Shown: positions 1 through 61,956 of the stretch, one piece after another
Layout: the number at the start of each line of letters is the position of its first letter
How positions within the stretch are numbered: position 1 is the first letter of the stretch
Source of the DNA: Chrysophaeum taylorii
Lineage: Eukaryota; Sar; Pelagophyceae; Pelagomonadales; Pelagomonadaceae
Direction: 5' to 3'
Assembly: GCA_029834535.1 (NCBI GenBank)
Contig: JAQMWT010000125.1
Span: 1 to 64,000 of the forward strand
Length of the DNA: 64,000 bases
The notes under the pieces: generated by a model
What the model was told of the DNA's origin: nothing
Database searches by the model: none
Seen by the model: only the letters and a program-made list of their open reading frames with translations
Made by a program: the position numbers and the translations under genes

Positions 1-181
1 ATAGAAAATTCCATTTAGGGTTAGGACCCCCCCCCCTTAACCTCACACTCACACTAAACAACCCAAAATCGCTGTGTCGAACACCGTGCTGCTCTTTGTG
101 TCGTTAGAGGACAGGACGAAAGGCAGCACTACCACTGCCACCATTCTCTACCAGAGGCACAGTGATTTTTACTGTTCTCTA
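1..181 (+). repeat. Left LTR (edge cut by window)
   Basis: This stretch matches 8081-8265 almost base for base, including a poly-C run and the shared end CTGTTCTCTA. The repeat probably starts about 5 bp before the window, because the right copy is preceded by TGGAG. Confidence 0.8.
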
Positions 182-8075: not shown

Positions 8076-8265
8076 TGGAGATAGAAAATCCCATTTAGGG
8101 TTTGGACACCCCCCCCCCCCTACACCTCACACTCACACTAAACAACCCAAAATCGCTGTGTCGAACACCGTGCTGCTCTTCGTGTCGTTAGAGGACAGGA
8201 CGAAAGGCAACACTACCACTGCCGCCATTCTCTACCAGAGGCATAGTGATTTTTACTGTTCTCTA
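8076..8265 (+). repeat. Right LTR
   Basis: This is the partner of the repeat at the window start. It follows the purine-rich GCGAGGGCG tract and begins TGGAGATAG if the usual TG start applies. It ends at CTCTA where similarity to the left copy stops. Confidence 0.75.
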
Positions 8266-9160: not shown

Positions 9161-9608
9161 ATCAAGATTTTAGCTCCCGGAAAGCCGGGTACTTATGCCT
9201 CGATTCCTTACGAATTCCTGCACTGGCCTTACCCTCAACACAAAGCACCAAAAACCAATACACAATAGCACTGTAGTACTAGCAGTAGACCTTTAGAAAG
9301 TCTCTTAGAAGTCCACTATTAAAAACCCTTGTTCGAACCTTGACAATAAACAGAAAACAAGACTTGGTCTGGTTATCAGAGGGCCGCCAGAAGGGCCCTG
9401 CGGCAAATAAACTCCTAAACTATGACCCGACCCTTTAACGGCGGGTGGCATGACGTCAAATCCTTGGCCAGATTGACGTGACGAATTGTTTGTGCACACG
9501 TCTGCCGTTTGAACCTTGAGTGAAGTGTCACAACAGAATTTTTAGCATACATCCTTTCGCCGCATCCCTCTGCCTGGAACGTCGTGAGTGGGCAAGAACG
9601 TAAGAGGC
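9161..9608. other. Intergenic, upstream of the receptor-PARP gene
   Basis: This is AT-richer than the flanking genes and has no convincing gene. It should contain the promoter of the PARP-receptor gene; I do not see a clear TATA box. A GTG codon at 9588 extends the frame but is not a eukaryotic start. Confidence 0.4.
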
Positions 9609-12600
9609 ATGACTCTTGTTTCGTTGCTCTTGTTGTGCCTCGGCGCCCGAGCCTACGACATCGAGGTGGTCGTGTCGTCGGCCGTCCGCGGCGCGCACTA
9701 TCCCATCGCACAGAACGGTTCGGAGTGTTCGCTGGAGGCGTACGAAAGGTCGCCGTGTGAGTGCGATGGGGGTGTGGCACGGCGCGCGGCGGCCATCGCC
9801 GCACGGCGCGAAGAGGCATTGTTGGAGGGCAAAGATGCCGTGGTGGCGTTCGACATGGGCGGGTGGTTTTTCGGGTCGGGGCTGTTTCACCCTACGTTTG
9901 GCGACGCCGCGGCGAACGAGCTGTATCGCAGTCTCAATTTCCAGGCGCGAGGCCTCAACCCTCGCGATTTCGCTGCCGGGGTAACCGCGGACGAGCCGAC
10001 TGGTGGCAAAGCGCTCGCGGAGCACCTGGCGAGTACCGGGTCCGTGGCGATCGCCTCAAACCTTGACCTGACAGACGATCCATACTTAAATACGTCGCAC
10101 GTCCGGAAATTTTCCGTGTTCACGTTGTTTGATGATGTGAGGATGGGCGTATATCACATGATCGACGGCTTCGAGCTCGAGAACGTCTCGCCGCACTACG
10201 CCGCGCGTACTATCGGGTATGAGCGCGCTGTGTCGTTCGCGCTGTCCGAGATGACTGTTTCGGTTGGCATACCGGATGTTCACGTCATCATGGTCTCCAG
10301 CATCTCCGATGCTACGCTCGAGGGGATCGTCGCGAGAGCCGACGACGACACGTTGTTCTTTGTCGACGACGATTATCTCAGAGATCAACAAATCACCTAC
10401 TCGTTTGCCCTCAACTTCGTCCTCCCTGACTTAATTTTTCTCGACGGCACTTCGGAGATTGGACAGAGCTATGCCGAAGAAGACCGTCTTCAAACTTTCG
10501 AAAACTGGGCGCTCAACAAGGTCGGGTTCGCGGTTACGGACTCCAGGCCGAGGGGTGTTGCGCTCATGAACATGACCATGTCCTTCAACTCGGTGGGGCA
10601 GTACCAGCCCGATACCTCAAGCCGTGGCGTAATTGAATTGAATTGCGAATCGCCGGAAGACACGTCGATCCGCGAGGAGCTCGACGACCTTAAAGCAACT
10701 GTGGATCAAACTTTGGCGGATCCTGTGTTGGGGCACGTCGGTTACTTGACTTCGACCCTCGACGCCACCCAACTCATCCAGGACGCGGACTGCACGACGC
10801 TCTTGACCTCAGAAACTCCGTTGTGCGGCTGCGAGGTCGCCGAGTGCCAGGCCGGCGATTTTGTCGCGGATGCTCTCAGGTGGTACGCGGACGCCGATGT
10901 TGCATTTGTCGCCGCCGGAGCGCTGGGCGCCTCCCTCGGGAACGGTGCGGTCACCAAAGCCGACATCATCAACCTCGTGCCCGATTTGGGCGACGAGATC
11001 GTCGTGCTCAGGAACGTCCTCGGAAGGTCTATCCGCGAAGCTTTGCAGCGTTCGATCGAACGTCTCGACGTCGAGGCACCTCACATCGACGACGATGATG
11101 ACGACGACTACTCGTCCGACTCGCTGTCGCTGGATGTCTACAATGGTCGTTACTTCCTCCAGGTGTCATCGTCGGTGGAGACCACGTGGTTCTTTTTGTC
11201 TGAAGTCCCCACGATCGACAACAACATCCTCATTGATGGTATCGAGCTCGATGACAACCGCAACTACTCGGTCGCGGGCTCCTGTCGACTTTTCACTAAC
11301 ATGGACGACACCGGCTCCATCTACGCTGACATCTTCGAGGATGCCGACGTTGTCGAGCTCGGAGTCGCGCACTGGAGTGCCGTCTCGGCCTACATGCAGA
11401 CGTTCTATCCGACCGAAGACATCGCACTCGATGCTACCACCGCTTACAACATCGCGGGTGGCTTTTCCAACTCGACGGTCCCTGCGCGCATATCTCAGGA
11501 GTCTGATGAATTCATCAAGGTCCACGTCGCAGTGCTGTGCGGGGGGTCAATCGTTCGCCGTGAGCAATGCGATCATGCCCTGAACGCAATCGCTCTCTTG
11601 AACGACCGCGATGGCTCGTTGTATAACCAACTCGTTCCGAACGTCAGGCTCGTCGCGCACGATGTTGCGGTCGGTTGCGTCGAGGGCAGGGCGTTCGACG
11701 GCTTGGTCGCGCTCGCGTCGACTTTGGACGGAGAGCCAATCTCGCTGGTCATTCCGACGTGCTCGGACGACGTGGCCGCGGTCTCCTCGACCGACGCTCT
11801 GGCGGCGTTCGCGGCACAAACGGGCCAATCCGAACCATACGTGGTCGTCACTCCCGAGGCGACATCCCCGTCGTTTAGTGACGAAGTCACGTATCCGTAC
11901 CTCGTGCGCGTCGCCACCTCCAAAACCGAAGTGGGCGCCGCGATGTCTAAATTTGCCGAGTCGTACTGGGCGCGGATAATCGTCGTGCACGACGACACGC
12001 GGTGGAGCCAGGAGGGTGCTCAGGCGTTCGTCGACAAATTTCGCTCGGACGAGCACTTCATTCTCGGTGGCGGCATCTGCATCTCGGGGGCCAACTACAC
12101 CTGCGGGGCCACGACCAAGATTGGCGGGGAGAACGTGGGCGTCGCGTTCTCGCTCGAGGCGTTCGACGCGGGCGACGTCACGGGTACCGACATCCTCGAA
12201 TCGGTCGCGTCTCTCGGGTCCAACATCGTCTTCATAGCAACGTACCCGCGCGTCCAGGAGCAGATCTATGCGGCCTCGTACAAGACGGGGCTAATGCATG
12301 GCGCAGGCTATGGCTGGCTTAACTTCTACCCGTCGGAAGACGCGTTCTTCGACTCGGCGGGGAACGTCGAGCTCGACGCAATCTTCGGTCACGAGGGTGC
12401 GGTCGGATTCATCGAACATATGCCGGTGTATGCCGATGGGCAAGAGACTGAGTTGTACATCGATGCGTGGGTTCCCAGGGCCAGCGTCGAGGCGTGTACG
12501 GACCGATCTATCGTGGCTGGGACGTCGTTGATATACGAAGACGGCCAGCTCGCCGAGTACGGCGAGGCGAGCGAGAACGACTTCGTCTACGTCTCCGCAG

Positions 12601-15467
12601 ACAGAACTCTGTATTGCGACGTAGACGGCGACCCATACACCATCTACGGATACGGCGCGTTTTGGTTTGACTCGGTAGTCGTCTACACGTTGGGCCTCGA
12701 CGGTTTCATGCAATCTTCGTCGAACGCTGAAATTGCTAGCGCCGACGATTTTTCGGCCGCGGGTATCTACGCGAATCTCCTCGAGATCGAGCAATTCGGA
12801 GGCGTTTCGGGGTTCCTCATCCTCTCCAACAAAACGGGCGACCGCCTTGGCACGATCGACATGAACAACATGCAGGTCACGAACAGAGATTATCGCCGCC
12901 GCCGCCGCAGCCTCGAGGAGACCGCGTCGTCGTCCTCTTCGGAGGAGCCGCCGCTAGTCGGGGCGGCTCGCGAGCAACTGGTTGTGGAGAATTTCGAGCG
13001 CGCGGTCGAACTGAGGAGTTCTTTCGCCGAGTTCGTCATCTTCGGCGAATACGACGTCTCGGACAAGTCGTCCACGGTGAAAGGCACGGTCGTTTGGCCG
13101 GGGCGAACGACTTCCGTCCCCGTCGACTACGTTACGAACGAGGACGCGTTGACCTACCAAGACAAAAAAAATTCGACGAGCTTCAGGAGAACCCTTATCT
13201 TCTTTCTGGTGCTCGCGGGGGTCGTGTTCGTCATGGTTCTCGCTTGCGTCTGCATCTCGGCCGGGTACGTGTTCCGTCTCCAGGACTTTCGCCACCGCAA
13301 GGCGCTCGTCGCGTCGCTTCGCGCGTACGAGGTCGTGGAACCGTTCGACCCGGAGCAGCACGAAGAAAAAACGGTGCACGTCCTCGAGAAGCGCGGGACC
13401 GAAGACATTTTCGGCAAAGGCGACGCTTCAACGCTCATCACGGCCTTTTCTTTTCGAAACGAAGCAGAGAACAGCAAGCTGCCGTTCGCGACTTCGGACG
13501 ATATTCCGGGGTGGGGCGACGCGCAGAACACGTCGTCGCCGTCGTCGTCGTTGCACGAAGATGTCAAGGACCAAGGGTTTCGGCGCGGCGGGGCCACCGC
13601 CGGCGGGATCTTTAAGCTGGAGATGTGGTGGTGGGAGGAAGATAACGAGCGACTCAAGAAGAAAGACGAGGCAAAAAACGTCGACGCGTCTCTGGACGAC
13701 GACGACGGCGTCGAGTCCGCGTGGGTCGCGTATGACGAGATGGTCCAGGACCAGCTCTCTGAGTTGTACTGGCGCTTCTGTCAGCTCCCCGAAGCTGTGC
13801 GGGAGGAGCTCAAATCGTATTCGGGCAGAAACGAGGAACTCGACTCGGACGACGGCGACGACGAGATGGCGACGTCGGATAATAACGTCGTCGCCGGCGT
13901 CGAACCCATCGACTACACGCTCATCGTTCGGTCCGCGGCGGCGGCGGCGGCGGCGACGACGACAAATGTCCCAGAACAGCCCTCGATCGATGTGCTCAGC
14001 GTGCGGCGGACTTCCAGCAGGGATCCCGATTTCAAGGCGGAACTCGCCCCGTCGACGACGACGACCGCCACCAACGGCAAATGGTTCGAGATCAACGTCG
14101 CGACGATGACGCAGCGCAATCTCAAAACGGGAAGGTGCCGCAAGGTGAGGATGGACCCGGACTCCCGGGAGGTCGAGTTCACGTGGTACTGGCGGGAAAA
14201 CTTCCGGAACATGGCCAAGTGGCGCAACGCGGCGACGCGGAGCGGCACGTTGTGGGTCCGCTACGAAGATCCGCACGTCCAGCGCAAACTGTCGGAGGCA
14301 TACCTCGCGCGCCGCCGCCACGAGACCAAGTCCTCGGCCGTCAAAATTGATGCCTTTAACGAGCTCACGACGTCGGCGATCGAGTACAAGTACGAGATCG
14401 ACGTGGGGACGATGTGGCAGACCAAGATCGAGACGGGCTTTCGTCGCCCGGTCTGCGTCATGATGGAGGCGACGCGCGACTCGAACGTCCGCACCCCCGG
14501 AGGCTCGAGCGCGCTCGTCAAGGGTGTGCCAACTGTCAAGGGCATGCCGCGCGACATCCAGGGCCGCGAGTGCCTCACCCTCACGACCGGCATGCTCGTG
14601 TCGGTCGTCTACGAGCACGACGGCGGCGAGTGGGCGTTTGGCCGCGAGATCCACAACATGAACGAGGTTCTCGACAACGCCGGCTGGTTCCCCATGTCGT
14701 GCGTCAAGGAGTGCGACCAGTGCATCTCGATCGTCCCCGACACAACCGCGCTCCGCGATTTCAAGTTTTTGCTCCCGCCGAAGAGTTGGACGGCGATGGG
14801 CAACGAGTCCCGGTGCAACGCGGTCGAACTCGGCACCGGCCGCGCGACGGCCAAAGAGCGCGCCGAAATCTTGCGCGCCTTTGATCCAAACTACTACAAC
14901 ATCATTTCCGTCGAGCGCATCCAGAACGTGTCGCTCTGGCGCCCCTACGCGACAAAACGCATGACCATCCTCGAGCGCGAGGGTCTCGCCCCCGACCGTC
15001 GCTTGTTGAAGGACAACAACGGCTTCGATCCAAAGGTCGAGGTCTTCCCAGTCTACCACGGCACTACTGGCGAAGCCGCCGGCAAGATCGTCGAGCAGGG
15101 CTTCAATCGCGATTTTTGCTCCACGTCGGCCCAGCACGGCCGCGGCGTCTACTTTGCGGTCGAGGCCGATTACTCGTGCTTTCCAAAGTACTCGCCGCCC
15201 GACAAGGACGGCATCCAAAACGTCTTTGTGTGCCGCATCATCGTCGGCCACTACACGAAGGGCGTCGCCGGGGCTGTCGTCCCGCCGGCTCTCGAAGGTA
15301 ATCCAAACCAGCGCTACGACACCACCGTCGACAACGAGGTCCATCCGACCATTTTCGTCACCTACAACGACCACCAGGCCTATCCTGCCTACCTCGTCCG
15401 GTTCACTTCAAAAACTGAAGATGTCCATGACATTTCCCTGGATGGCGACGCATCACCTCTGCTCTAA
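9609..15467 (+). CDS. Single-pass receptor-like PARP (5'-nucleotidase-like + ANF/PBP-like ectodomain, WWE-PARP cytosolic)
   Basis: The protein has 1952 residues from ATG 9609. Residues 1-16 (MTLVSLLLLCLGARA) form a signal peptide. Residues ~17-340 align with the metallophosphoesterase half of 5'-nucleotidases, but the usual DAGD and GNHEF metal motifs read DMGG (~82) and LNPRDF (~115). Residues ~377-600 match the 5'-nucleotidase C-terminal domain (LGDEIVVLRNVLGRSIREAL). Residues ~638-1095 look like a periplasmic-binding/ANF-receptor fold. One membrane span lies at ~1195-1221. The cytosolic part has two WWE-like domains (~1338-1516, ~1520-1620), an SH3-like stretch (~1657-1700) and a PARP domain with H1817 (YHGT), Y1848 (GRGVYFA) and I1915, the H-Y-I pattern of mono-ADP-ribosyltransferases. 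I infer a ligand-sensing surface receptor that signals by ADP-ribosylation. Confidence 0.85.
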   Translation: MTLVSLLLLCLGARAYDIEVVVSSAVRGAHYPIAQNGSECSLEAYERSPCECDGGVARRAAAIAARREEALLEGKDAVVAFDMGGWFFGSGLFHPTFGDAAANELYRSLNFQARGLNPRDFAAGVTADEPTGGKALAEHLASTGSVAIASNLDLTDDPYLNTSHVRKFSVFTLFDDVRMGVYHMIDGFELENVSPHYAARTIGYERAVSFALSEMTVSVGIPDVHVIMVSSISDATLEGIVARADDDTLFFVDDDYLRDQQITYSFALNFVLPDLIFLDGTSEIGQSYAEEDRLQTFENWALNKVGFAVTDSRPRGVALMNMTMSFNSVGQYQPDTSSRGVIELNCESPEDTSIREELDDLKATVDQTLADPVLGHVGYLTSTLDATQLIQDADCTTLLTSETPLCGCEVAECQAGDFVADALRWYADADVAFVAAGALGASLGNGAVTKADIINLVPDLGDEIVVLRNVLGRSIREALQRSIERLDVEAPHIDDDDDDDYSSDSLSLDVYNGRYFLQVSSSVETTWFFLSEVPTIDNNILIDGIELDDNRNYSVAGSCRLFTNMDDTGSIYADIFEDADVVELGVAHWSAVSAYMQTFYPTEDIALDATTAYNIAGGFSNSTVPARISQESDEFIKVHVAVLCGGSIVRREQCDHALNAIALLNDRDGSLYNQLVPNVRLVAHDVAVGCVEGRAFDGLVALASTLDGEPISLVIPTCSDDVAAVSSTDALAAFAAQTGQSEPYVVVTPEATSPSFSDEVTYPYLVRVATSKTEVGAAMSKFAESYWARIIVVHDDTRWSQEGAQAFVDKFRSDEHFILGGGICISGANYTCGATTKIGGENVGVAFSLEAFDAGDVTGTDILESVASLGSNIVFIATYPRVQEQIYAASYKTGLMHGAGYGWLNFYPSEDAFFDSAGNVELDAIFGHEGAVGFIEHMPVYADGQETELYIDAWVPRASVEACTDRSIVAGTSLIYEDGQLAEYGEASENDFVYVSADRTLYCDVDGDPYTIYGYGAFWFDSVVVYTLGLDGFMQSSSNAEIASADDFSAAGIYANLLEIEQFGGVSGFLILSNKTGDRLGTIDMNNMQVTNRDYRRRRRSLEETASSSSSEEPPLVGAAREQLVVENFERAVELRSSFAEFVIFGEYDVSDKSSTVKGTVVWPGRTTSVPVDYVTNEDALTYQDKKNSTSFRRTLIFFLVLAGVVFVMVLACVCISAGYVFRLQDFRHRKALVASLRAYEVVEPFDPEQHEEKTVHVLEKRGTEDIFGKGDASTLITAFSFRNEAENSKLPFATSDDIPGWGDAQNTSSPSSSLHEDVKDQGFRRGGATAGGIFKLEMWWWEEDNERLKKKDEAKNVDASLDDDDGVESAWVAYDEMVQDQLSELYWRFCQLPEAVREELKSYSGRNEELDSDDGDDEMATSDNNVVAGVEPIDYTLIVRSAAAAAAATTTNVPEQPSIDVLSVRRTSSRDPDFKAELAPSTTTTATNGKWFEINVATMTQRNLKTGRCRKVRMDPDSREVEFTWYWRENFRNMAKWRNAATRSGTLWVRYEDPHVQRKLSEAYLARRRHETKSSAVKIDAFNELTTSAIEYKYEIDVGTMWQTKIETGFRRPVCVMMEATRDSNVRTPGGSSALVKGVPTVKGMPRDIQGRECLTLTTGMLVSVVYEHDGGEWAFGREIHNMNEVLDNAGWFPMSCVKECDQCISIVPDTTALRDFKFLLPPKSWTAMGNESRCNAVELGTGRATAKERAEILRAFDPNYYNIISVERIQNVSLWRPYATKRMTILEREGLAPDRRLLKDNNGFDPKVEVFPVYHGTTGEAAGKIVEQGFNRDFCSTSAQHGRGVYFAVEADYSCFPKYSPPDKDGIQNVFVCRIIVGHYTKGVAGAVVPPALEGNPNQRYDTTVDNEVHPTIFVTYNDHQAYPAYLVRFTSKTEDVHDISLDGDASPLL

Positions 15468-15622: not shown

Positions 15623-16738
15623 TTAGGCGAGAGGGGAACGGGCTGTGATCTGAAGGTCGCCGCGACTATCTTTTGATACCCTGAGGTCGTCGTCGATGTA
15701 CACGACGTCGAAAAAGCCCGAACCGACGGGGGGAAGGTCGAACTCGAACCCCCTGTAGCATGCCCGGCACCCCTGGAACTCGAAGTAAACGCGCGTTGGG
15801 TCGGTCGGCTCGCAGGTGGACGTGACTTTGAGGAAAGAGCCGTCCTCGAAGTCGACGTGGTTGTTCAACGAACCGCCTCGGATGGACTGGGACGCGGCTC
15901 CGCCGCGGTCGGTGAGCGCGAGGAGCTCTGCCTCGGTGGTCCATAGGACGTCATAATTGGCGTCGAGGAGGCGGTCGAGATCTGTGCGGCGCGGCGGCGC
16001 CGTGGCGGCGAGGGCGTCGACGAGTCGGGGTACGGCGGCGGCGTCGCCGTCGCGAATCGCGTCGAGGAGCGCCAGCTTGAGGGTTTTGCGGTCGCCAAAG
16101 TCCCTCGTCAGCACGAACAAGGCCGTATCGTCGTCGCCGTGGCTCGAGAAGACGCGTGCGCCGCCGTCGACAGAGGTTCGTACGATCCTGAGCGTCGCGT
16201 CCGAGTACGAGAGCCTCCACGTCCTCTCTACGCCGTCGGGAAACTCGTAACATAACGGTCCCAGCCGCAGAGATTCGAAACGGACGCGAAGCGAGGTCTC
16301 GTCCCCCTCGAAGCTCGCCTCGAGGTCGAGCCTCACGGGCCCCAGCACGAGCGAGTTGATATACGAACGCCCGGCGACGTCGATTATCTGTCGCGCCTCG
16401 CCGCGGAACGGACCTAGGTATCCGTTCGACGGCGGCGGCGCGGTCGAGTAGGCCACGCGCCACGCGCCATCGAGGGCTTCCAGAGGGGCGGTGCTCCCCT
16501 CGAGCTGCGCACACAACGCGTCGATGCGGTGTCTGGTGGTTGCATCGCGCGGGACGCGCCCCTCGGTGGCGATGGCTTCCAACACGGCCTGCCGCGCGGG
16601 AGAATTTTTCTGCGCGACGACCGCGCGACCCGTCGCGGCGCGCTGCCCGAGCTCGCCGAAGATGTCGCCGAGACGCCGCACGTCGTACGCCGCTGCCGCC
16701 GCATTGAGGAGCGCCAAAGACAAGAAGAAGAAAACCAT
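15623..16738 (-). CDS. PAP/fibrillin family protein, two lipocalin-like domains
   Basis: The protein has 371 residues and starts with a hydrophobic signal-like segment (MVFFFLSLALLNAAAAA), as expected for a secondary-plastid bipartite leader. The first PAP/fibrillin domain spans ~85-210 (LDGAWRVAYSTAPPPSNGYL). The second spans ~250-365 and ends with the family signature VVYIDDDLRVSKDSRGDLQI. Fibrillins bind hydrophobic molecules in plastoglobules and thylakoids; the exact ligand cannot be told. The 3' end faces that of the PARP-receptor gene with about 155 bp between. Family is sure, plastid targeting likely. Confidence 0.88.
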   Translation of the reverse strand: MVFFFLSLALLNAAAAAYDVRRLGDIFGELGQRAATGRAVVAQKNSPARQAVLEAIATEGRVPRDATTRHRIDALCAQLEGSTAPLEALDGAWRVAYSTAPPPSNGYLGPFRGEARQIIDVAGRSYINSLVLGPVRLDLEASFEGDETSLRVRFESLRLGPLCYEFPDGVERTWRLSYSDATLRIVRTSVDGGARVFSSHGDDDTALFVLTRDFGDRKTLKLALLDAIRDGDAAAVPRLVDALAATAPPRRTDLDRLLDANYDVLWTTEAELLALTDRGGAASQSIRGGSLNNHVDFEDGSFLKVTSTCEPTDPTRVYFEFQGCRACYRGFEFDLPPVGSGFFDVVYIDDDLRVSKDSRGDLQITARSPLA

Positions 16739-17783: not shown

Positions 17784-19478
17784 ATGGAGTTTGCCGACGA
17801 CGATTCGTCGTCGAGGCGCTTCGATGCTGTTGTCGTGGGAACGGGTCTCGTCGAGTCGATGTTGGCCGCAGCCCTCGCACGCGCGGGCGAGCGGGTCCTC
17901 CACGTGGACGCGCACGACTACTACGGCAACGACATGGCGGGGTTTGCGACGCTCGAGCAAGTGCGTCGATGGGCTGAGGACGACCCACCCCTTTTTGCCG
18001 AGGACCATCGAGACGAGAACGCGGTGTTGCTGCGGCACGAGGAAGTCCGCGTCGTGCACTCCCAGACGGGTTCGTTGCCTATAGGCCGTCGATTGAACGT
18101 GGATCTCGACGCGCGCCTCGTCCTCGCGTCGGGCGAAGCCGTCGACGCGCTCGTCGCGCTCGGCGTCGCGCACTACCTCGAGTTCGCCGCCGTCGGGTCG
18201 TTGTGGTTCGAGGATCAGAAGGTTCCGTGCTCGAAGAAGGACGTCTTCACGTCGGCGGACCTGTCGCCGGCCGAGAAGCGAAAGTTGATGCGGGTCATGC
18301 GTCGCGCGCTCGACGCGTTCGAAGACGACGCCGGCACGCTCAACGAACGCGAGCTCACGGGCTCGCGCGCGCTCCGGCGACCCCAAAACAAGCGCCTCGA
18401 CGAGACCCTCGTCGACGACGCTCGCCGGTTTGTCGACGTGCTGCGCGACGACTTCGGGCTCGCCGTCGCCGCCGCGCGAGTGGTCTGCGCGGCGGCTTTC
18501 GTCGACCCCGCCTCTCCCGCGACCGAGGGCTGGCACGGCCTCCACACCCACCTCCGCGCCCTGGGAGCTCACGCCGGCACCCAAACGGCGCTCCTGGCCC
18601 CCATATACGGCACGGCCGAGTTCCCGCAGGCGCTCTGCCGGGCGTGCGCCGTCCGAGGGGGCGTCTACGCGTTGCGCCGCGCGCCGTCGGCCCTGGCCGT
18701 CGAGGACGGCAAGGTCGTCGCCGCAATCTTCCCCGACGGCGCCCGCATCCCCGTCGCCAAGGCCGTCGTCGCTGCCGACTACCTGCTGACAGCCTCGGGC
18801 GAACGCGCGTACCGTCGCGTCGCGATCGTCGAGAGCAGCGACGTCGAGCCGGCCGCGATCGTCTACGAAGGTAACGTGCGTTGCGTCGTCCTCGGCGAGA
18901 GCGCCAATGCCGTCGACACCCCGACGCTCCGCCTCGTCCACCTCTCCTCGGACTCTCTCGAGGCCATCCGCGACGTCGCGGCCAAGCGCGACGACGCGAC
19001 CCTCTGGAGCCTCGAAGTTTCGTTTCCGGTGCACCCTCCACCCCGCGACCTCCCCTCCAACCTCGCCGTCTGTCGCCGCCTCCCCTGGACCCCCCGCTTT
19101 GACTTGACTCCGGAGGTCGATCACGCCAAGGCCCTCTTCGAACGCCTCCGCCCCGGCGAATCCCTCGTCCCCCCTCCGGAAGAAACCCCCGATTCTCCGC
19201 GCGACGACCGACGCGACGACGACGACGACGACCTCGCCGACCTCGCCACCCGGGTGGCCACTTTGCAAGAGGCCCCAATAACACCCAGCAATCTCCGACA
19301 ACGAGATGATGATGCTGCTCCGGACCTCACCATGCCGACCCCAACGGACGACAACCAACAAGAACAAGGAGAAGAACAACGCCCCAACGACATCATCCCA
19401 CCTGAGGGCGCTCCTGGTGACATCGCCGATCTTCAGGATGCTGCTGCTGCGGTTGCTGCTTCTGGGGACAGACAGTGA
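17784..19478 (+). CDS. CHM: Rab escort protein (REP/GDI superfamily)
   Basis: The protein has 564 residues. The N-terminus has the FAD-like dinucleotide fold of GDI/REP proteins: VVVGTGLVESMLAAALARAG (~16-35), then VLHVDAHDYYGND. Residues ~105-170 contain RLNVDLDARLVLASG and VPCSKKDVF; the VPCS..DVF stretch is typical of REP rather than GDI. ALLAPIYGTAEFPQALCRAC followed by RGGVYALR is the conserved Rab-binding region. REP presents newly made Rab GTPases to geranylgeranyl transferase II and delivers them to membranes. The last ~130 residues are acidic and low in complexity. Confidence 0.85.
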   Translation: MEFADDDSSSRRFDAVVVGTGLVESMLAAALARAGERVLHVDAHDYYGNDMAGFATLEQVRRWAEDDPPLFAEDHRDENAVLLRHEEVRVVHSQTGSLPIGRRLNVDLDARLVLASGEAVDALVALGVAHYLEFAAVGSLWFEDQKVPCSKKDVFTSADLSPAEKRKLMRVMRRALDAFEDDAGTLNERELTGSRALRRPQNKRLDETLVDDARRFVDVLRDDFGLAVAAARVVCAAAFVDPASPATEGWHGLHTHLRALGAHAGTQTALLAPIYGTAEFPQALCRACAVRGGVYALRRAPSALAVEDGKVVAAIFPDGARIPVAKAVVAADYLLTASGERAYRRVAIVESSDVEPAAIVYEGNVRCVVLGESANAVDTPTLRLVHLSSDSLEAIRDVAAKRDDATLWSLEVSFPVHPPPRDLPSNLAVCRRLPWTPRFDLTPEVDHAKALFERLRPGESLVPPPEETPDSPRDDRRDDDDDDLADLATRVATLQEAPITPSNLRQRDDDAAPDLTMPTPTDDNQQEQGEEQRPNDIIPPEGAPGDIADLQDAAAAVAASGDRQ

Positions 19479-24151: not shown

Positions 24152-24766
24152 ATGATGATAGGGCTCCGGTACGCCTTCGCCGAGTACCACTACGTCGGGC
24201 CCGAGATTGCGTTGGAGGATGGGGTCGAGGTGTGCGGGCTCCAGATCACGTTGATGTCGCGGAGCGAGGAGGCGTGCGGGAGCTTCCATTTGGTCGTAGG
24301 CCAGCGCAGGAACGAGATGCTCGCGCTCCCAAAGGTCGTCGCGACCTGCGAGTGCCTTTCGTTCGAGGGCATCGTGGTCGAGGAGCACAGCGAGGTCGTC
24401 CACGGGGAGGTGCTGCGGGAGTGGTCGCTGCGCGCCGACGACACCGAGTTCTATTTGATCGGCCCGAAGCTCGGGGCGAGCGTCGTCAAGCTAGTGCTGT
24501 TCGAAACCCTCGAGATTGACCGCATGCACACCCTCGAACGCGTCGAGGACGTCGCCGAGTTTTCGAGGCGACTGGCGACCTACAGCGCGCACCCCATGAC
24601 CTGGTTCCAAAATCGACTCGACTCGTCCGCCACAAATTTTTCGGCGTCGTCGTCGTCGTCGTCGTCTTCGAAGGACGCGACCAAGGCTTCCCGCCATCCC
24701 ACCACGACCCCAAATAATAATAATAATAGTACGTCACAGGACGGGACCGCTCCCGACCTCGTGTGA
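24152..24766 (+). CDS. Hypothetical protein with Ser/Asn-rich tail
   Basis: The protein has 204 residues starting at tandem ATGs (24152/24155). The first ~145 residues look folded, with beta-rich segments (VGPEIALEDGVEVCGLQITL, LREWSLRADDTEFYLIGPKL). The last ~50 are a low-complexity Ser, Thr and Asn tail partly coded by (TCG)n and (AAT)n repeats. No family is recognised. Its last 33 bp overlap the 3' end of the convergent glycosyltransferase gene. Confidence 0.6.
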   Translation: MMIGLRYAFAEYHYVGPEIALEDGVEVCGLQITLMSRSEEACGSFHLVVGQRRNEMLALPKVVATCECLSFEGIVVEEHSEVVHGEVLREWSLRADDTEFYLIGPKLGASVVKLVLFETLEIDRMHTLERVEDVAEFSRRLATYSAHPMTWFQNRLDSSATNFSASSSSSSSSKDATKASRHPTTTPNNNNNSTSQDGTAPDLV

Positions 24767-26020
24767 TGCGGGTGTTTTGTCATCATCGTTAAAGAAGTCG
24801 GGCCGGAGGAGGATGCTGTTGTTGTCCTCGCGGCGGTTGCGAAGGACGGCGGTGTCCATAAGGTTGGCGGGCGCGCGGCCGAAGTGGGTCGACGTCGAAA
24901 AGTGGCCGTACCCGTACACGAGATCGTCCGAAATCTCGCGCATGTAGGCGACGAGGTGCGCGTGCCTCTGGGGGGAGACCAAGACCAAGGCGGCTCTGAC
25001 GGCCGCCCTCGGGTTTTCGTAGAACCTTGCCTCGTCGACGCGGGGGAAGACGGTGTAGTCGACGTAAATGTCGTGGAAGGGGAGGTGGGGATGGTCGGGG
25101 CCCGAGACGAACCACCCCCATCCCGACTTGCAGGGGGATTCGCACCGCCCCTCGAGCCTCGTTCCGACGACGAGCGGTACGCAGCCGGCGACGATCGCGT
25201 CGAAGAGGCGTCGACTCGTCGGCGTGTCGCCGCACATGACCAAACAGTACTCGGCGCGGTGCATGCTGCTGGCGAACTTTTCCATAGAGACGAGCCGCCT
25301 GTGGACGTGGATCGAGGCGCGGTCGTCGAGGTTCGAGAGACCGGCGGCTTTGGACCGGTCGCAGTTGCCCCACTTAATCGCGTTCGGCCGATCGCGCGCC
25401 GCGAAGAAGACGCTGATGTCCTTCTCGAAAGAATGGCCCTCGCCAAAAAAAAGCTGGGCATCCACAACGTATGGCATTGCGATGATCCGGTCGAGCGATT
25501 CGCGATCTCGCGACGAGACCTGGACCCACGCGGGGTTGACTTCGAACGCGCCGCGGAACGAGACCGGCAATGCGCGCGACACGAGGTCCATGCCAATCTG
25601 TCGCGCCGTCGCCGGATTCCACGACGAGTACCCGAACACGTGGTCGCGCCCCCCCCGGCGTCGAAACCACGGCGAAGCCGTCACGTTCCCGAGCATCGTT
25701 TCCACTTTCGCGCGCGACGCGAGCCGAAGATAGGCCGGCACAAAGAACACCTCGGCCTCCCAGGGATCGAGCGTCCGCCGCGAGCTCGCGAGCAACGCGC
25801 GATGCACCCACACCTCGGCGGTCTCCTCCGCGATCTCGTGTCTTCGCCTCCCTTCGATAACGCTCACCGTGACGGCGTCGACCGCCGGGCCCGCGTACAC
25901 GTAAAATCTATATCGCCCAAGCGCTCCGAGGACCTTTTCGCGCTGCGCGCGGTACGCCACCACCAACGGACTATCGCTCCAAACCACCGACGCGCACATC
26001 ATCATCAACGTCCCTATCAT
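24734..26020 (-). CDS. Exostosin-like glycosyltransferase (GT47-type)
   Basis: The protein has 428 residues with a short hydrophobic N-terminus (MIGTLMMMCASVVW) that may be a signal peptide or anchor. FYVYAGPAV near ~40, then TLDPWEAEVFFVPAYLRLAS (~85-105), match the start of exostosin domains. The nucleotide-sugar region reads AEYCLVMCGDTPTSRRLFDA followed by IVAGCVPLVV (~275-300), the exostosin hallmark. Golgi synthesis of wall or extracellular polysaccharide is the likely role; the sugar is unknown. The C-terminal ~11 codons overlap the convergent neighbour. Confidence 0.85.
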   Translation of the reverse strand: MIGTLMMMCASVVWSDSPLVVAYRAQREKVLGALGRYRFYVYAGPAVDAVTVSVIEGRRRHEIAEETAEVWVHRALLASSRRTLDPWEAEVFFVPAYLRLASRAKVETMLGNVTASPWFRRRGGRDHVFGYSSWNPATARQIGMDLVSRALPVSFRGAFEVNPAWVQVSSRDRESLDRIIAMPYVVDAQLFFGEGHSFEKDISVFFAARDRPNAIKWGNCDRSKAAGLSNLDDRASIHVHRRLVSMEKFASSMHRAEYCLVMCGDTPTSRRLFDAIVAGCVPLVVGTRLEGRCESPCKSGWGWFVSGPDHPHLPFHDIYVDYTVFPRVDEARFYENPRAAVRAALVLVSPQRHAHLVAYMREISDDLVYGYGHFSTSTHFGRAPANLMDTAVLRNRREDNNSILLRPDFFNDDDKTPASHEVGSGPVL

Positions 26021-45630: not shown

Positions 45631-46674
45631 CTAGACCCCCCGTGGCGAGGGGTCATCCGGTGACTCTGAAGGTGCCGAGGAGGCCTCCGGACACGGGGCG
45701 ACGAAAAACCGCGCGGGATCGTCGGCGTCGAGGACGTCGCGCGCGTTCAAGGCGGAGGTCGACGCGCCCAGAATCGGTACGGTGTCGCCGCGCGCCCGCG
45801 CCGTCGTGACGATGCGGAGAAATTCCTGGCGCGGCATGTTGGTCGCGCCCATGGCAATCTTGTAGGGGAGCTCCATGCCGAGATCCCAGAGGACGTAGCC
45901 CGAGAGGCGGAGCCAGTTTGCCGTCGCGGCGCACTGGACGCTGCCCGCGCTCGGAAAGTTGGAAAAGCCCGAGAGCGAGGTGTAGACGTTGCCGCACGCA
46001 TACCCGAGCTCGCCGGCGACGAGGGTATCGTCGCGCCAACACTCGAAAGTGTGAACGCGCACGCACGACATCGGAGGCGACTCGAGGATGGCGCGGAAGG
46101 CGGCCACGAGCGGCGGGTACAGCCAACACTCGTCGCCGTGTTGGCGGCTGATCCCTTTGACCACCGCGTCGAAGGCGGCGTCGCACGAGACGCGGAAGTG
46201 CTTGGCCTTGCGTCGTATCGACCGGGGCGCGCGTCGGTCTTCAAACCGCAGAGCACACCGCTGCCGGTGGAGCTTTGGAAGCAACGCGTAGGTGTCGGCG
46301 GCGACGCGCTGCGCCATGGTCAAAAACCCGTGGGACATGAGCGCCGCGATAAACCCCGGCTCGAAGCTCGACGCCCAGCAGAATTCGCCGCCGTACCGAG
46401 ACGCGATGAGCCGCGCGACGCGCTCGAGGCTCGCCTCATCGCACCGCTCGATGAACGGCACGCCCTCAAGCCACGGACACGAACGCGCGATCCGCCGAGA
46501 CGACTCCTCCGCGTTCTCCTCACGACGCGACACGGGCAGCCAGTAACGAGACGCAGGCTTCGACTCCTCCTTGGAAGACACAGTCACGCGAATCACCTCC
46601 TCCCCGCTGCTCTTCGACTCCGCGGCCGAGCTTTTACCCGGACCGCTCACCGTCGCGGCCGTTATCAAAAACAT
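45631..46674 (-). CDS. Leucyl/phenylalanyl-tRNA-protein transferase homologue (Aat family)
   Basis: The protein has 347 residues from the ATG at 46674. FCWASSFEPGFIAALMSHGF (~96-115) matches the Aat motif that begins the GNAT-like domain. Then come VVKGISRQHGDECWLYPPLV and VRVHTFECWRDDTLVAGELG (~212-240), where bacterial Aat has HS.E.W....LVGG. LPYKIAMGATNMPRQEFLRI near 292-311 corresponds to the ending .G...IPR.EF. Bacterial Aat attaches Leu/Phe to proteins to mark them for degradation. Its role in an algal cell is unknown. The first ~90 residues may be a targeting or added domain. Confidence 0.75.
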   Translation of the reverse strand: MFLITAATVSGPGKSSAAESKSSGEEVIRVTVSSKEESKPASRYWLPVSRREENAEESSRRIARSCPWLEGVPFIERCDEASLERVARLIASRYGGEFCWASSFEPGFIAALMSHGFLTMAQRVAADTYALLPKLHRQRCALRFEDRRAPRSIRRKAKHFRVSCDAAFDAVVKGISRQHGDECWLYPPLVAAFRAILESPPMSCVRVHTFECWRDDTLVAGELGYACGNVYTSLSGFSNFPSAGSVQCAATANWLRLSGYVLWDLGMELPYKIAMGATNMPRQEFLRIVTTARARGDTVPILGASTSALNARDVLDADDPARFFVAPCPEASSAPSESPDDPSPRGV

Positions 46675-46832
46675 CTCAACGCCTTCCGCTCGGAGAACTT
46701 GGCATCGAGGCTCTTTGGGCAGACGGCATTGCTTTCCGTTGAGGTTCTGACTTTGACTTCTCGCGAGACGCCGAGTCGGGGCTAGACGTAAAAACGGAGA
46801 GAGATCCGAGATCGAGATCTCGTGGCGGCCCT

Positions 46833-46977
<145 letters not shown>

Positions 46978-47206
46978 TAAAAAGTCGAAAGAGGAAGGGT
47001 CGCTGAGAGAGAGACTCTTGAGAGCCACCGTTGCACACCACGCCCAACACGTCTATTCTCCCTCCCGTAGATCCACCACTCATATCACCCGGTGTGTTCG
47101 TTCCGGAGCTCTGAAGAGTTGTGGCGCCACACATGTGCACGTACGTCTCTCGAAAAGTCCCACGCGGAAGGGCAGACACTAGATACGCGATCCTAATAAT
47201 AAGTAG

Positions 47207-53764: not shown

Positions 53765-53911
53765 CGTCGCACAAAAAATGTATTCGAATCAGATTCTCTG
53801 CGTACGTATAGGGTCCAGAAGAGAGGTTAAAGGGTAATAAACGAATTTCAGGGTTATTAGTGAGCGGACATTACTTAAGCATCGCAGCGCAGCCATAAGG
53901 CAATTAACGTG

Positions 53912-55129
53912 ATGGTGCGGCGCGTTCGGGAGCGACGCGGGCTGCGCGGGCGGGATGACGAGTTGCGGTTACCGCTGATCAACGAAAATAGACCGCGACT
54001 CATGATGCTCCGCACGCAGCCGCGGCGGTACGAAGAGGACTCGAACGAGGACGACGAGGAGATGCGGCGGCGGCGGCCGCCGCGGAACCGGCGCAAGCCC
54101 TACCGTTCGCGTGGCGGCAGCGCGGCCGACGAAGCCGAGCTTCGCGTCTCGGTGTATTGCGTCGGCGACGTGGTCGACTGCGGTGTGTTACTCAAGCGCC
54201 TCGAACGCGGCAAAGTCGCTCGGCCTCGCGGGCCGTGGGTGGACGTCTTGTGGGAGAACGCGGTCCACTCGTCTCAGATGGTCGAGTGCAAGAAACAGCA
54301 ACGACGAACGCATCTCGAGGACGAGGATGCGGGCGACCTCGGAGACTTCGAAGCGTCGGAGGAAGACGTCGCGCCCCCGCGGTCGCCCCCGAGGTCGCCG
54401 CCGCGAGACGAGTACTGGACCAAGCACGTTTTCGTCTTCGGCTTTGGGTGCGTCGTTATGTGGGGCTTCGACAAGTCGGAAGAACGCGAACTCGTCGCTG
54501 GACTCCTTGGCGACCACTCTGTCGACGCCGGCCTTACTAGCGCCGCCGAGCGCGTCGAAGCCCACGACACGATGACCTACAAGGTCGAAGCGGGCCGCGG
54601 CACCTGCAAAAACGACGTGATCCGCCTCTCCTCCGATGACCCCCTCGAAAAATTTTCGCTTAGCTACGCGCTCGCCCAGTCGGCCAAGCTCTTCATCTGG
54701 GAGTTCCGCGTCGACGTCACCATCAAGGAGGTCAAACACATCCCCGAGCGTCTCGCCGCCACGGGCAAGACCGACCTCACCGAAAAGCGCATCTCCCAGA
54801 TGATCGGCAAGGTCTTTATCGAGCGGACCCAGGTCAACCTCCACTCCGAAATCCTCGACGTCCCCGAGCTTCTCTGGGAGGACGACCAGCACGAGCCGGG
54901 CTACGTCGAACTCCGCCAGCACCTCGACGTCCCCGAGCGCGTCGACCTCCTCAACAACCGCCTCGACATTTTGAAAGAACTCCTCGAGGTCCTCAACACC
55001 CAGCTCTCCAACCACCACTCGTCCCGCCTCGAAATCATCGTCATCTGGCTCATTATCGCCGAAATCCTCGTCACCCTCTTTGCCTTTATCATGGACCGCC
55101 TCCTTCCGCGCGGCTACTCTCACGACTGA
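53912..55129 (+). CDS. RMD1/RMND1-like protein (DUF155) with C-terminal anchor
   Basis: The protein has 405 residues from the ATG at 53912. The first ~70 residues are Arg-rich. The DUF155 core runs ~75-380: VFVFGFGCVVMWGFDKSEER, then DVIRLSSDDPLEKFSLSYAL and EKRISQMIGKVFIERTQVNL. A membrane span lies near the end (IIVIWLIIAEILVTLFAFIM). Family members act in mitochondrial translation (RMND1) or vacuole/sporulation processes (yeast RMD1). The acidic ~150-170 insert is not conserved in the family. It is divergent from the large receptor gene with 147 bp between starts. Confidence 0.85.
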   Translation: MVRRVRERRGLRGRDDELRLPLINENRPRLMMLRTQPRRYEEDSNEDDEEMRRRRPPRNRRKPYRSRGGSAADEAELRVSVYCVGDVVDCGVLLKRLERGKVARPRGPWVDVLWENAVHSSQMVECKKQQRRTHLEDEDAGDLGDFEASEEDVAPPRSPPRSPPRDEYWTKHVFVFGFGCVVMWGFDKSEERELVAGLLGDHSVDAGLTSAAERVEAHDTMTYKVEAGRGTCKNDVIRLSSDDPLEKFSLSYALAQSAKLFIWEFRVDVTIKEVKHIPERLAATGKTDLTEKRISQMIGKVFIERTQVNLHSEILDVPELLWEDDQHEPGYVELRQHLDVPERVDLLNNRLDILKELLEVLNTQLSNHHSSRLEIIVIWLIIAEILVTLFAFIMDRLLPRGYSHD

Positions 55130-60768: not shown

Positions 60769-61956
60769 CTAGGGCGAAAGAGGTCGTCGTCTATCGGCAC
60801 GGGCTTTGGCAGCCCTCGCTTTGAGCAAGAGACGCATCTCGCGGTCGAGATCGGGGTCTATTATCAAGGCCGAGTCGTAGTTTCTTCCGGAGGTTGCGTC
60901 GCCGACAATCAAAAGCTTGAGCCTGGGGCGCTTTTTTTCAAACAAGTCGGGGGCTACGTGGAATAGATCGTTGCCGCGGACGTCGAGGAGGTGGAGGACG
61001 CGAAGGCGGAGGAGAGCGTCGACGGGGAGGTCCGAGATGGCGTTGTCGGCAAAGTTAAGGACGTGGAGGGTCGCGGGGAGGCAGTGGGCCGGGAGGTCGA
61101 AGAAGGCGTTCTTGCTGAGCGCGAGCGTCCTGAGTTTAGGCATGGCGGCGAGCGTTTTCGGGAGCGCGTCGAGCGAGTTGCGGTCCGCGTAGAGTTTGTC
61201 GATGTTCGTTGCGTGCGTGGCGAGGGCGTCGGGGAGTGTTCTCAAACCGACGCCCGAGACGCAGAGAGTCGAGAGGTGTTGGAGCGTGCGACAGAGGGCG
61301 GTCGGAAAGTGGCCGACAGCCGTGTTATTGGTGAGCCAGAGGTGTCTGAGGAAGGGAAGCTTCGCGGCGGCGCGCACCAGCCTCGACGCGTACCGGGCAT
61401 CGATTCCCTCGAGCGTGGGAGCCACCCCGAGACTATCCAACGAGAGGTTCGCCAGGCTCGAGAGGGGGATGCGGTCTCGCGCGTTTGGCGGGAGCGAGAG
61501 GTCGAGCACGCCGTGCGCCTCGATGCACGCGCGATGCTTAAGTCGCGCTTCCAAGAGCTCGTCGGGATCGAGGATACCCGCAGGAGGTCGCCTCGGGCGG
61601 CGGCGGACTCTGCGGTCGGGGGGTTGCGCGGCGGCGGGCGGCGGCTCTTCGACGACTGAAACCCTGGGAAGCTCTTCGATTGCAAAGAAGCTCTTCAGAA
61701 ACTTGGCCCCATCGAGGGCGCCGCCGTTTTTGTCCTCGTTGTCGTCGAAGTGGGCCACGAGGGCAGCGACTTCTTCGTCGTTCAGCATACTCCGTCCGAA
61801 GCACCGGCGCAGCCGTTGCTTGAAAGCCGCCGGCGTGAGGCGTTCGCCGAGGATCGAGCGTAGGACCTCGTTGTTGCCGTCGTACCTCACGGCGGCGAAC
61901 GTCATCTTCGCCAGCGCCTGCGTGAGCGCCGACGTCGTCGACGCCGTAGGCAGCAT
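60769..61956 (-). CDS. Leucine-rich-repeat protein with EF-hand-like N-terminus
   Basis: The protein has 395 residues. Residues ~40-95 contain an EF-hand-like helix-loop-helix (EEVAALVAHFDDNEDKNGGA) with an Asp-rich loop, so Ca binding is possible. A Pro/Arg-rich linker follows (~97-125). About eight LRRs cover ~145-345 (LRHLWLTNNTAVGHFP, LRTLALSKNAFFDLP, LHVLNFADNAISDLP). The C-terminus is basic (AKARADRRRPLSP). Likely a cytosolic scaffold; no partner is known. It is divergent from the coiled-coil gene, 79 bp between starts. Confidence 0.8.
   Translation of the reverse strand: MLPTASTTSALTQALAKMTFAAVRYDGNNEVLRSILGERLTPAAFKQRLRRCFGRSMLNDEEVAALVAHFDDNEDKNGGALDGAKFLKSFFAIEELPRVSVVEEPPPAAAQPPDRRVRRRPRRPPAGILDPDELLEARLKHRACIEAHGVLDLSLPPNARDRIPLSSLANLSLDSLGVAPTLEGIDARYASRLVRAAAKLPFLRHLWLTNNTAVGHFPTALCRTLQHLSTLCVSGVGLRTLPDALATHATNIDKLYADRNSLDALPKTLAAMPKLRTLALSKNAFFDLPAHCLPATLHVLNFADNAISDLPVDALLRLRVLHLLDVRGNDLFHVAPDLFEKKRPRLKLLIVGDATSGRNYDSALIIDPDLDREMRLLLKARAAKARADRRRPLSP

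What the first reader, a model, noticed from the sequence alone, without database searches (positions are those of the whole stretch)
9609..15467. One-piece transmembrane receptor with a cytosolic PARP domain
The protein runs signal peptide, 5'-nucleotidase-like module, ANF/PBP-like module, one membrane span, two WWE-like domains, SH3-like stretch and PARP. Known PARPs and ARTDs are cytosolic, nuclear or ER-anchored; I know of none with a ligand-binding ectodomain of this kind. The layout mirrors receptor guanylate cyclases, with ADP-ribosylation in place of cyclic nucleotide output.
Basis: partly seen in the sequence, partly recalled or inferred. Interest (0 to 1): 0.9.

Follow-up and report, generated by a model that had tools for sequence, protein, structure and literature searches.

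The report
Algal cell-surface receptor carrying PARP
A pelagophyte alga has a family of proteins that look like cell-surface receptors, with an outside sensor that resembles glutamate receptors joined through one membrane span to an inside enzyme of the ADP-ribose-attaching (PARP) kind, a combination I did not find described.

Summary
Window 9609-15467 (+) is one uninterrupted 1952-codon frame. It encodes a signal peptide, a 5'-nucleotidase fold, a Venus-flytrap (ANF/class C GPCR type) domain, one membrane span, tandem WWE domains, a weak SH3-like stretch and a PARP catalytic domain. It is not an accidental fusion: four other full-length proteins (1775-1942 aa) share the layout. Three are Chrysophaeum taylorii (Pelagophyceae) gene models, one is from an unnamed source; identity is 84, 52, 44 and 42%. 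Two ectodomain fragments also cross the span.
Refinements: the 5'-nucleotidase is a pseudo-enzyme, with the mappable metal-ligand positions lost in 5 of 5 except one Asp in one paralog. Among solved structures the flytrap is closest in sequence to metabotropic glutamate receptors. The PARP is Clade 3-like with an H-Y-I triad, predicting mono-ADP-ribosylation.
Best reading: a ligand-gated receptor mono-ADP-ribosyltransferase. Catalysis, ligand and gating are inferred; both structure models are low confidence. Membrane-anchored PARPs are known; none with a ligand-binding ectodomain appeared in the listings and passages I saw. The source genome could not be searched.

The parts
9609..15467 (+). 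whole open reading frame, 1952 aa plus stop; no intron needed
9609..9653 (+). predicted signal peptide, aa 1-15 (A-R-A before Tyr16)
   Evidence: hydropathy peak aa 4-22. N-terminal peak above 1.5 also in P0002, P0004 and P0005 but not in P0003, whose N-terminus is hydrophobic only by inspection; no SignalP run
9657..10595 (+). pseudo-5'-nucleotidase N-terminal (metallophosphatase-fold) domain, about aa 17-329; metal ligands lost
10812..11279 (+). 5'-nucleotidase C-terminal domain, aa 402-557 (Pfam 5_nucleotid_C)
   Evidence: 1.4e-15; above cut-off in 5 of 5 full-length
11520..12893 (+). Venus-flytrap / ANF_receptor domain, aa 638-1095; S719, T752, W799 invariant in 7 of 7 rows
   Evidence: Pfam; phmmer to mGluR5; Foldseek GABA-B/mGluR
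12894..13184 (+). fast-changing linker (aa 1096-1130) and extracellular juxtamembrane segment (aa 1131-1192)
   Evidence: per-segment identity
13185..13268 (+). single transmembrane span, aa 1193-1220 (hydropathy core 1196-1214, mean 3.21)
   Evidence: strongest peak at the matching place in 5 of 5 full-length plus P0006 and P0007
13269..13412 (+). conserved cytosolic juxtamembrane segment, aa 1221-1268, candidate coupling element
   Evidence: 98/73/52/60% identity to four homologs, higher than every ectodomain segment listed; start of it also in P0006 and P0007
13614..14168 (+). WWE domain 1 with a long internal linker, aa 1336-1520
   Evidence: Pfam two WWE stretches; W1340, W1342, E1343, Q1502, R1511 invariant in 5 of 5
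14169..14474 (+). WWE domain 2, aa 1521-1622
14574..14714 (+). SH3-like stretch, aa 1656-1702 (weak)
   Evidence: SH3_2 6.3e-4, below cut-off; aa 1640-1702 is 94/87/67/68% identical to the four homologs
14760..15413 (+). PARP/ART catalytic domain, aa 1718-1935; triad H1817 (15057-15059), Y1848 (15150-15152), I1915 (15351-15353)
   Evidence: PARP15 2e-29; Foldseek PARP10 2.8e-5; residue columns

Best explanation
A single-pass cell-surface receptor whose output enzyme is a mono-ADP-ribosyltransferase. Shown by sequence or fold: signal peptide, pseudo-5'-nucleotidase, flytrap, one span, tandem WWE, PARP, all in one conserved gene. Inferred: (1) a small ligand, perhaps amino-acid-like, closes the flytrap, helped or tuned by the catalytically dead nucleotidase module; (2) closing rearranges a dimer, as in other flytrap receptors; (3) the conserved 48-residue juxtamembrane segment passes the change to the cytosolic half; (4) the H-Y-I PARP domain attaches single ADP-ribose units from NAD+ to itself or to nearby proteins; (5) the two WWE domains read ADP-ribose or an adenine nucleotide (as WWE domains do elsewhere), giving feedback or recruiting partners.
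For: One frame and one conserved layout in 5 of 5 full-length members. Among solved structures the flytrap is closest to metabotropic glutamate receptors: P0007 to mGluR5 E 2.1e-6 for the whole protein, the window's own flytrap 0.0011; Foldseek to GABA-B and mGluR, best 1.1e-4. S719, T752 and W799 invariant in 7 of 7. One strong membrane span. 14 invariant ectodomain cysteines against 2 on the cytosolic side. Cytosolic juxtamembrane segment better conserved than the span and than every ectodomain segment. PARP hits ranked PARP15, 14, 10, 12, then 13, far above tankyrase. His and Tyr of the triad kept in 5 of 5, Ile at the third place in 4 of 4 that have it, the residue reported for PARP10 (PMC2964712 passages). 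WWE Gln, Trp and Arg marks conserved in both copies (roles of Gln and Trp from PMC11269756 passages).
Against: No transcript, protein, ligand or activity data were seen for this gene. Both structure models are low confidence (mean pLDDT 39.5 and 42.8). The position that aligns to an mGluR acidic pocket residue is Lys in the window protein and P0002, Glu in the other five, so an amino-acid ligand is uncertain for this copy. The mGluR match of the window's own flytrap is modest (best single stretch 0.043). Basic residues lie on both sides of the span (sequence), so topology rests on the signal peptide and on domain type. Linkers inside the cytosolic half are poorly conserved (12-29% to the more distant homologs). 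P0008, the only transcriptome hit, lacks the ectodomain, so a soluble relative may exist.
Confidence: 0.68

Rival explanations
1. A constitutive membrane-anchored ADP-ribosyltransferase: the ectodomain serves adhesion, wall contact or trafficking and does not gate the enzyme.
For: The nucleotidase module is dead and the linker before the membrane changes fast (23% identity even to P0002), which could mean loose coupling. PARP16 is a membrane-anchored mono-ART (PMC12377720 passages).
Against: The flytrap keeps S719, T752 and W799 in 7 of 7 and the cytosolic juxtamembrane segment is strongly conserved, as expected for a coupled sensor.
Confidence: 0.14
2. A receptor whose cytosolic half is released by cleavage (Notch-like) and works in cytosol or nucleus as a WWE-WWE-PARP protein.
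For: A WWE-SH3-PARP protein without ectodomain exists in a transcriptome set (P0008).
Against: P0008 may be an incomplete transcript; no cleavage motif was tested; the juxtamembrane motif is conserved on the same chain as the span in seven proteins.
Confidence: 0.08
3. A receptor whose PARP domain is inactive and acts, with the WWE pair, only as a reader or scaffold.
For: The triad Glu is absent; some Clade 3 PARPs are inactive (PARP9: PMC2964712 passages).
Against: His and Tyr are kept in 5 of 5 and the third residue is Ile as in PARP10, for which activity is reported; the PARP domain is among the better conserved parts.
Confidence: 0.07
4. An active ecto-5'-nucleotidase joined to a PARP.
For: CD73-like fold and Pfam 5_nucleotid_C. 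The position mapped to UshA F498 is still Phe in the window protein and P0003.
Against: Positions mapped to UshA D41, H43, N116, H117, R410 and F429 are replaced in 5 of 5, except that P0005 keeps Asp at D41; no His occurs in the segments mapped around H217 and H252. The mapping comes from a forced profile alignment of poor significance.
Confidence: 0.02
5. An artefact: two neighbouring genes read through as one, or a misassembly.
For: None found.
Against: Same layout in four other full-length proteins and two span-crossing fragments.
Confidence: 0.01

Closest known systems
PARP7/11/12/13 branch of Clade 3 (WWE-containing PARPs)
   Same: Tandem WWE before the ART domain; catalytic domain closest by sequence to Clade 3 members PARP15/14/10/12; triad Glu replaced; Foldseek to PARP10 ART, DTX1 and PARP13 tandem WWE
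   Different: No zinc finger among the Pfam matches; signal peptide, ectodomain and membrane span added; SH3-like stretch between WWE2 and ART; long insert inside WWE1
PARP16
   Same: Membrane-anchored with the mono-ART domain on the cytosolic side (PMC12377720 passages); here that side is predicted
   Different: PARP16 is Clade 6 with its span at the C-terminal end (PMC4245714 passages) and no ectodomain sensor
Clade 3 PARPs with a membrane span in sponge and Rhizaria (PMC4245714)
   Same: Clade 3 ART plus membrane span (section 12 read)
   Different: No nucleotidase or flytrap ectodomain is described there; I did not have their sequences
Receptor guanylate cyclases
   Same: Flytrap of the ANF type, one span, cytosolic enzyme (layout of the cyclases recalled)
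   Different: No kinase-homology or cyclase domain among the Pfam matches; output is ADP-ribosylation
Metabotropic glutamate / GABA-B receptors
   Same: Flytrap sequence and fold; part of the amino-acid pocket signature (signature recalled)
   Different: One span instead of seven; enzyme output
CD73 / UshA 5'-nucleotidases
   Same: Two-domain fold
   Different: Metal ligands and most of the substrate-contact residues tested are lost

Membership tests
PARP/ARTD superfamily (Clade 3 type) | PARP catalytic domain | tested here: met
   Pfam 7.9e-13 above cut-off; PARP15 2e-29; above cut-off in 5 of 5 full-length
PARP/ARTD superfamily (Clade 3 type) | catalytic His and Tyr of the triad | tested here: met
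   H1817 and Y1848 in 5 of 5
PARP/ARTD superfamily (Clade 3 type) | triad Glu replaced, as in most Clade 3 members (PMC2964712 passages) | tested here: met
   I1915 in 4 of 4 with sequence there, the fifth model ends early; aligned to Leu of PARP15
PARP/ARTD superfamily (Clade 3 type) | placement in Clade 3 by a tree | not tested
   only score ranking
PARP/ARTD superfamily (Clade 3 type) | ADP-ribosyltransferase activity | not testable with these tools
   needs enzyme assay
WWE-domain proteins | W..W..E and adenine-contacting Gln/aromatic residues | tested here: met
Active 5'-nucleotidase (UshA/CD73) | two-domain fold | tested here: met
   Pfam C-domain, Foldseek, N-domain superposition; model of low overall confidence
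Active 5'-nucleotidase (UshA/CD73) | di-metal ligands | tested here: not met
   with the forced mapping; one Asp kept in P0005; the D84 column could not be fixed because of a gap
Class C GPCR-type flytrap | PBP1/ANF fold | tested here: met
   Pfam above cut-off 5 of 5 full-length; Foldseek
Class C GPCR-type flytrap | amino-acid-binding residues (Ser, Thr, acid, aromatic; recalled) | tested here: inconclusive
   Ser, Thr, Trp 7 of 7; acid position is Glu in 5 and Lys in 2, including the window protein; S719 lies outside the printed mGluR alignment and was placed by eye
Receptor guanylate cyclase | cyclase and kinase-homology domains | tested here: not met
   five Pfam families matched at E up to 10, none of these; it works like one in layout only
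Single-pass type I membrane receptor | signal peptide and one span | tested here: met
   hydropathy only; in homologs weaker peaks of 1.5-2.0 also occur inside the ectodomain; no dedicated predictor available
Single-pass type I membrane receptor | ligand-dependent output | not testable with these tools
   needs experiment

The most novel reading that the evidence does not exclude
This is a new class of receptor enzyme, the receptor ADP-ribosyltransferases: a ligand sensed outside the cell by an mGluR-like flytrap, tuned by a dead 5'-nucleotidase, directly switches NAD+-dependent mono-ADP-ribosylation inside the cell, with a built-in WWE reader for feedback. Pelagophyte algae have multiplied it into paralogs with conserved output and diverging sensors.
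Probability: 0.5. Interest if true: 0.92.

Novelty: new variant of a known kind. Interest (0 to 1): 0.8.

Why it matters
Receptor enzymes with an outside sensor are known for phosphorylation and cyclic nucleotides (recalled). A receptor whose own cytosolic domain is a PARP would put ADP-ribosylation directly under control of an external ligand and give a one-protein system in which ligand gating of a PARP can be tested. It would also show that Clade 3 PARPs, best known from animal stress and antiviral biology, were recruited for surface sensing in a group of algae that can form coastal blooms.

Tried and rejected
Two-gene or misassembly reading: rejected because four full-length homologs and two span-crossing fragments share the join. 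Active nucleotidase: rejected on lost ligands. The profile-to-UshA comparison itself was not significant (probability about 1%, E 0.04-0.07, local match only in the C-domain); I rest the fold on the structure matches with weak NCBIfam support and use the forced alignment only to locate residues. No Pfam metallophosphatase match was found at the N-terminus (E up to 10). Single-sequence PDB searches: aa 17-637 gave nothing at E up to 10; the WWE region (290 aa) gave one unrelated hit at E 1.2. Nucleotide-sensor idea for the dead nucleotidase: weakened, because the positions mapped to UshA R410 and F429 are replaced in 5 of 5, though the one mapped to F498 is still Phe in 2 of 5 (residue roles recalled). 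Relatives in viral contigs and in the prokaryote genome contigs: none confirmed (49 and 74 pattern matches, none passed tblastn); the tool notes that records near the window's own may be left out. No Rfam match and no tRNA in the window. No second copy in the window. Paper searches: searches returned no paper; one search gave four unrelated papers; some searches listed only 20 of 149, 10 of 51 and 15 of 301 papers, none naming a flytrap or receptor PARP in the title or abstract start. Each of the three protein searches scored only the 8000 candidates sharing most words, and the ectodomain search missed P0005, which the whole-protein search had found, so absence elsewhere is weak evidence.

Full report
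What is there. The plus-strand frame 9609-15467 codes for 1952 residues without interruption. Shuffling its bases gives about 62 in-frame stops on average (minimum 38 in 200 shuffles), and third-position GC is the highest of the three in all 13 full 150-codon blocks. An in-frame TGA lies at 9585. Pfam places 5_nucleotid_C at 402-557, ANF_receptor at 742-814, WWE (two stretches), SH3_2 (weak, below cut-off) and PARP at 1763-1932. Hydropathy shows one signal-like stretch at the N-terminus and one span at 1196-1214. A tblastn of the family against the window finds this one copy only.

It is a gene family. A database search with the whole protein returned five proteins including the query: P0002 (1942 aa), P0004 (1920 aa) and P0005 (1775 aa), all named Chrysophaeum taylorii, and P0003 (1938 aa) from an unnamed source. 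Alignment identity to the window protein is 84, 52, 44 and 42% for P0002, P0003, P0004 and P0005. In the Pfam scans all four core domains (5_nucleotid_C, ANF_receptor, WWE, PARP) pass their curated cut-offs in 5 of 5; SH3_2 is matched below cut-off in 4 of 5 and not at all in P0005. The P0005 model ends early, inside the PARP domain. An ectodomain-only search added P0006 and P0007, fragments that cross the membrane span into the same cytosolic juxtamembrane motif and then lose similarity; it did not return P0005. A search with the cytosolic half listed only P0008, a 616-aa transcriptome protein with WWE, SH3-like and PARP parts but no ectodomain; full-length members lie outside that search's length limits. 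P0008 may be soluble or incomplete. Each search scored only 8000 candidates, so rarity is not proven. The C. taylorii annotation used RNA-seq evidence (PMC10366177, passages), but I saw none for individual genes. The window's own species is not shown by any search; its closest named relative is C. taylorii.

The membrane and coupling region. Just inside the span lies a 48-residue segment that is 98, 73, 52 and 60% identical to the four homologs, above every ectodomain segment, while the linker before the span is at 23-39%. The PARP domain (89/71/65/54%) is better conserved than the flytrap (81/47/42/40%); for the close relative P0002 alone, the nucleotidase parts (91-95%) are as conserved as the PARP, and the cytosolic linkers are poorly conserved in the more distant homologs. 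With that qualification, this is the pattern expected of receptors with a shared output and diverging sensors. Charge on either side of the span does not fix topology by itself.

What is known. PARP16 is called the sole transmembrane mono-ART of the PARP family in a 2025 review (PMC12377720, passages). A 2014 survey mentions Clade 3 PARPs with a membrane span in a sponge and in Rhizaria, where an H_lectin domain also occurs (PMC4245714, passages, section 12 read). Neither text, in what I read, describes a flytrap or nucleotidase ectodomain. Source names for the C. taylorii copies say only 'hypothetical protein' or 'Poly [ADP-ribose] polymerase'.

Verdict. The best mechanism is ligand-gated receptor mono-ADP-ribosylation, at 0.68. 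I class it as a new variant of a known kind (receptor enzymes; Clade 3 PARPs), with a stronger reading, a new class of receptor enzyme, at 0.5.

Noticed in passing
window 27-181 and 8111-8265: Two direct repeats of 155 nt, 96% identical, flank about 8 kb of strongly C-rich sequence in which five of the larger frames tested have no Pfam match; it looks like an LTR-type or other retroelement ending 1.3 kb upstream of the gene.
   Followed up: partly
window 13428-15374, minus strand: A 648-codon antisense frame lies inside the cytosolic half; probably a by-product of high third-position GC.
   Followed up: no
window 12894-12998 (aa 1096-1130): The linker between flytrap and membrane is only 23% identical between the window protein and P0002 although the nucleotidase parts are 91-95% identical.
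   Followed up: partly
window 11922-11924 (aa 772): The mGluR-like acidic pocket position is Lys in the window protein and P0002 but Glu in the other five, a possible change of ligand.
   Followed up: partly
window 15623-16738 minus; 17784-19478 plus; 24734-26020 minus; 53909-55129 plus; 60769-61956 minus: Neighbours with Pfam matches: PAP_fibrillin, GDI/REP, exostosin GT47, DUF155, leucine-rich repeats; among the 20 frames scanned none points to a linked ADP-ribosylation pathway.
   Followed up: no
window 45631-47028 minus: A frame with a leucyl/phenylalanyl-tRNA protein transferase domain (1.2e-21), a family usually known from bacteria (recalled).
   Followed up: no
P0005 C-terminus: This gene model ends before the last PARP strands, so its third triad residue is not seen.
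   Followed up: no
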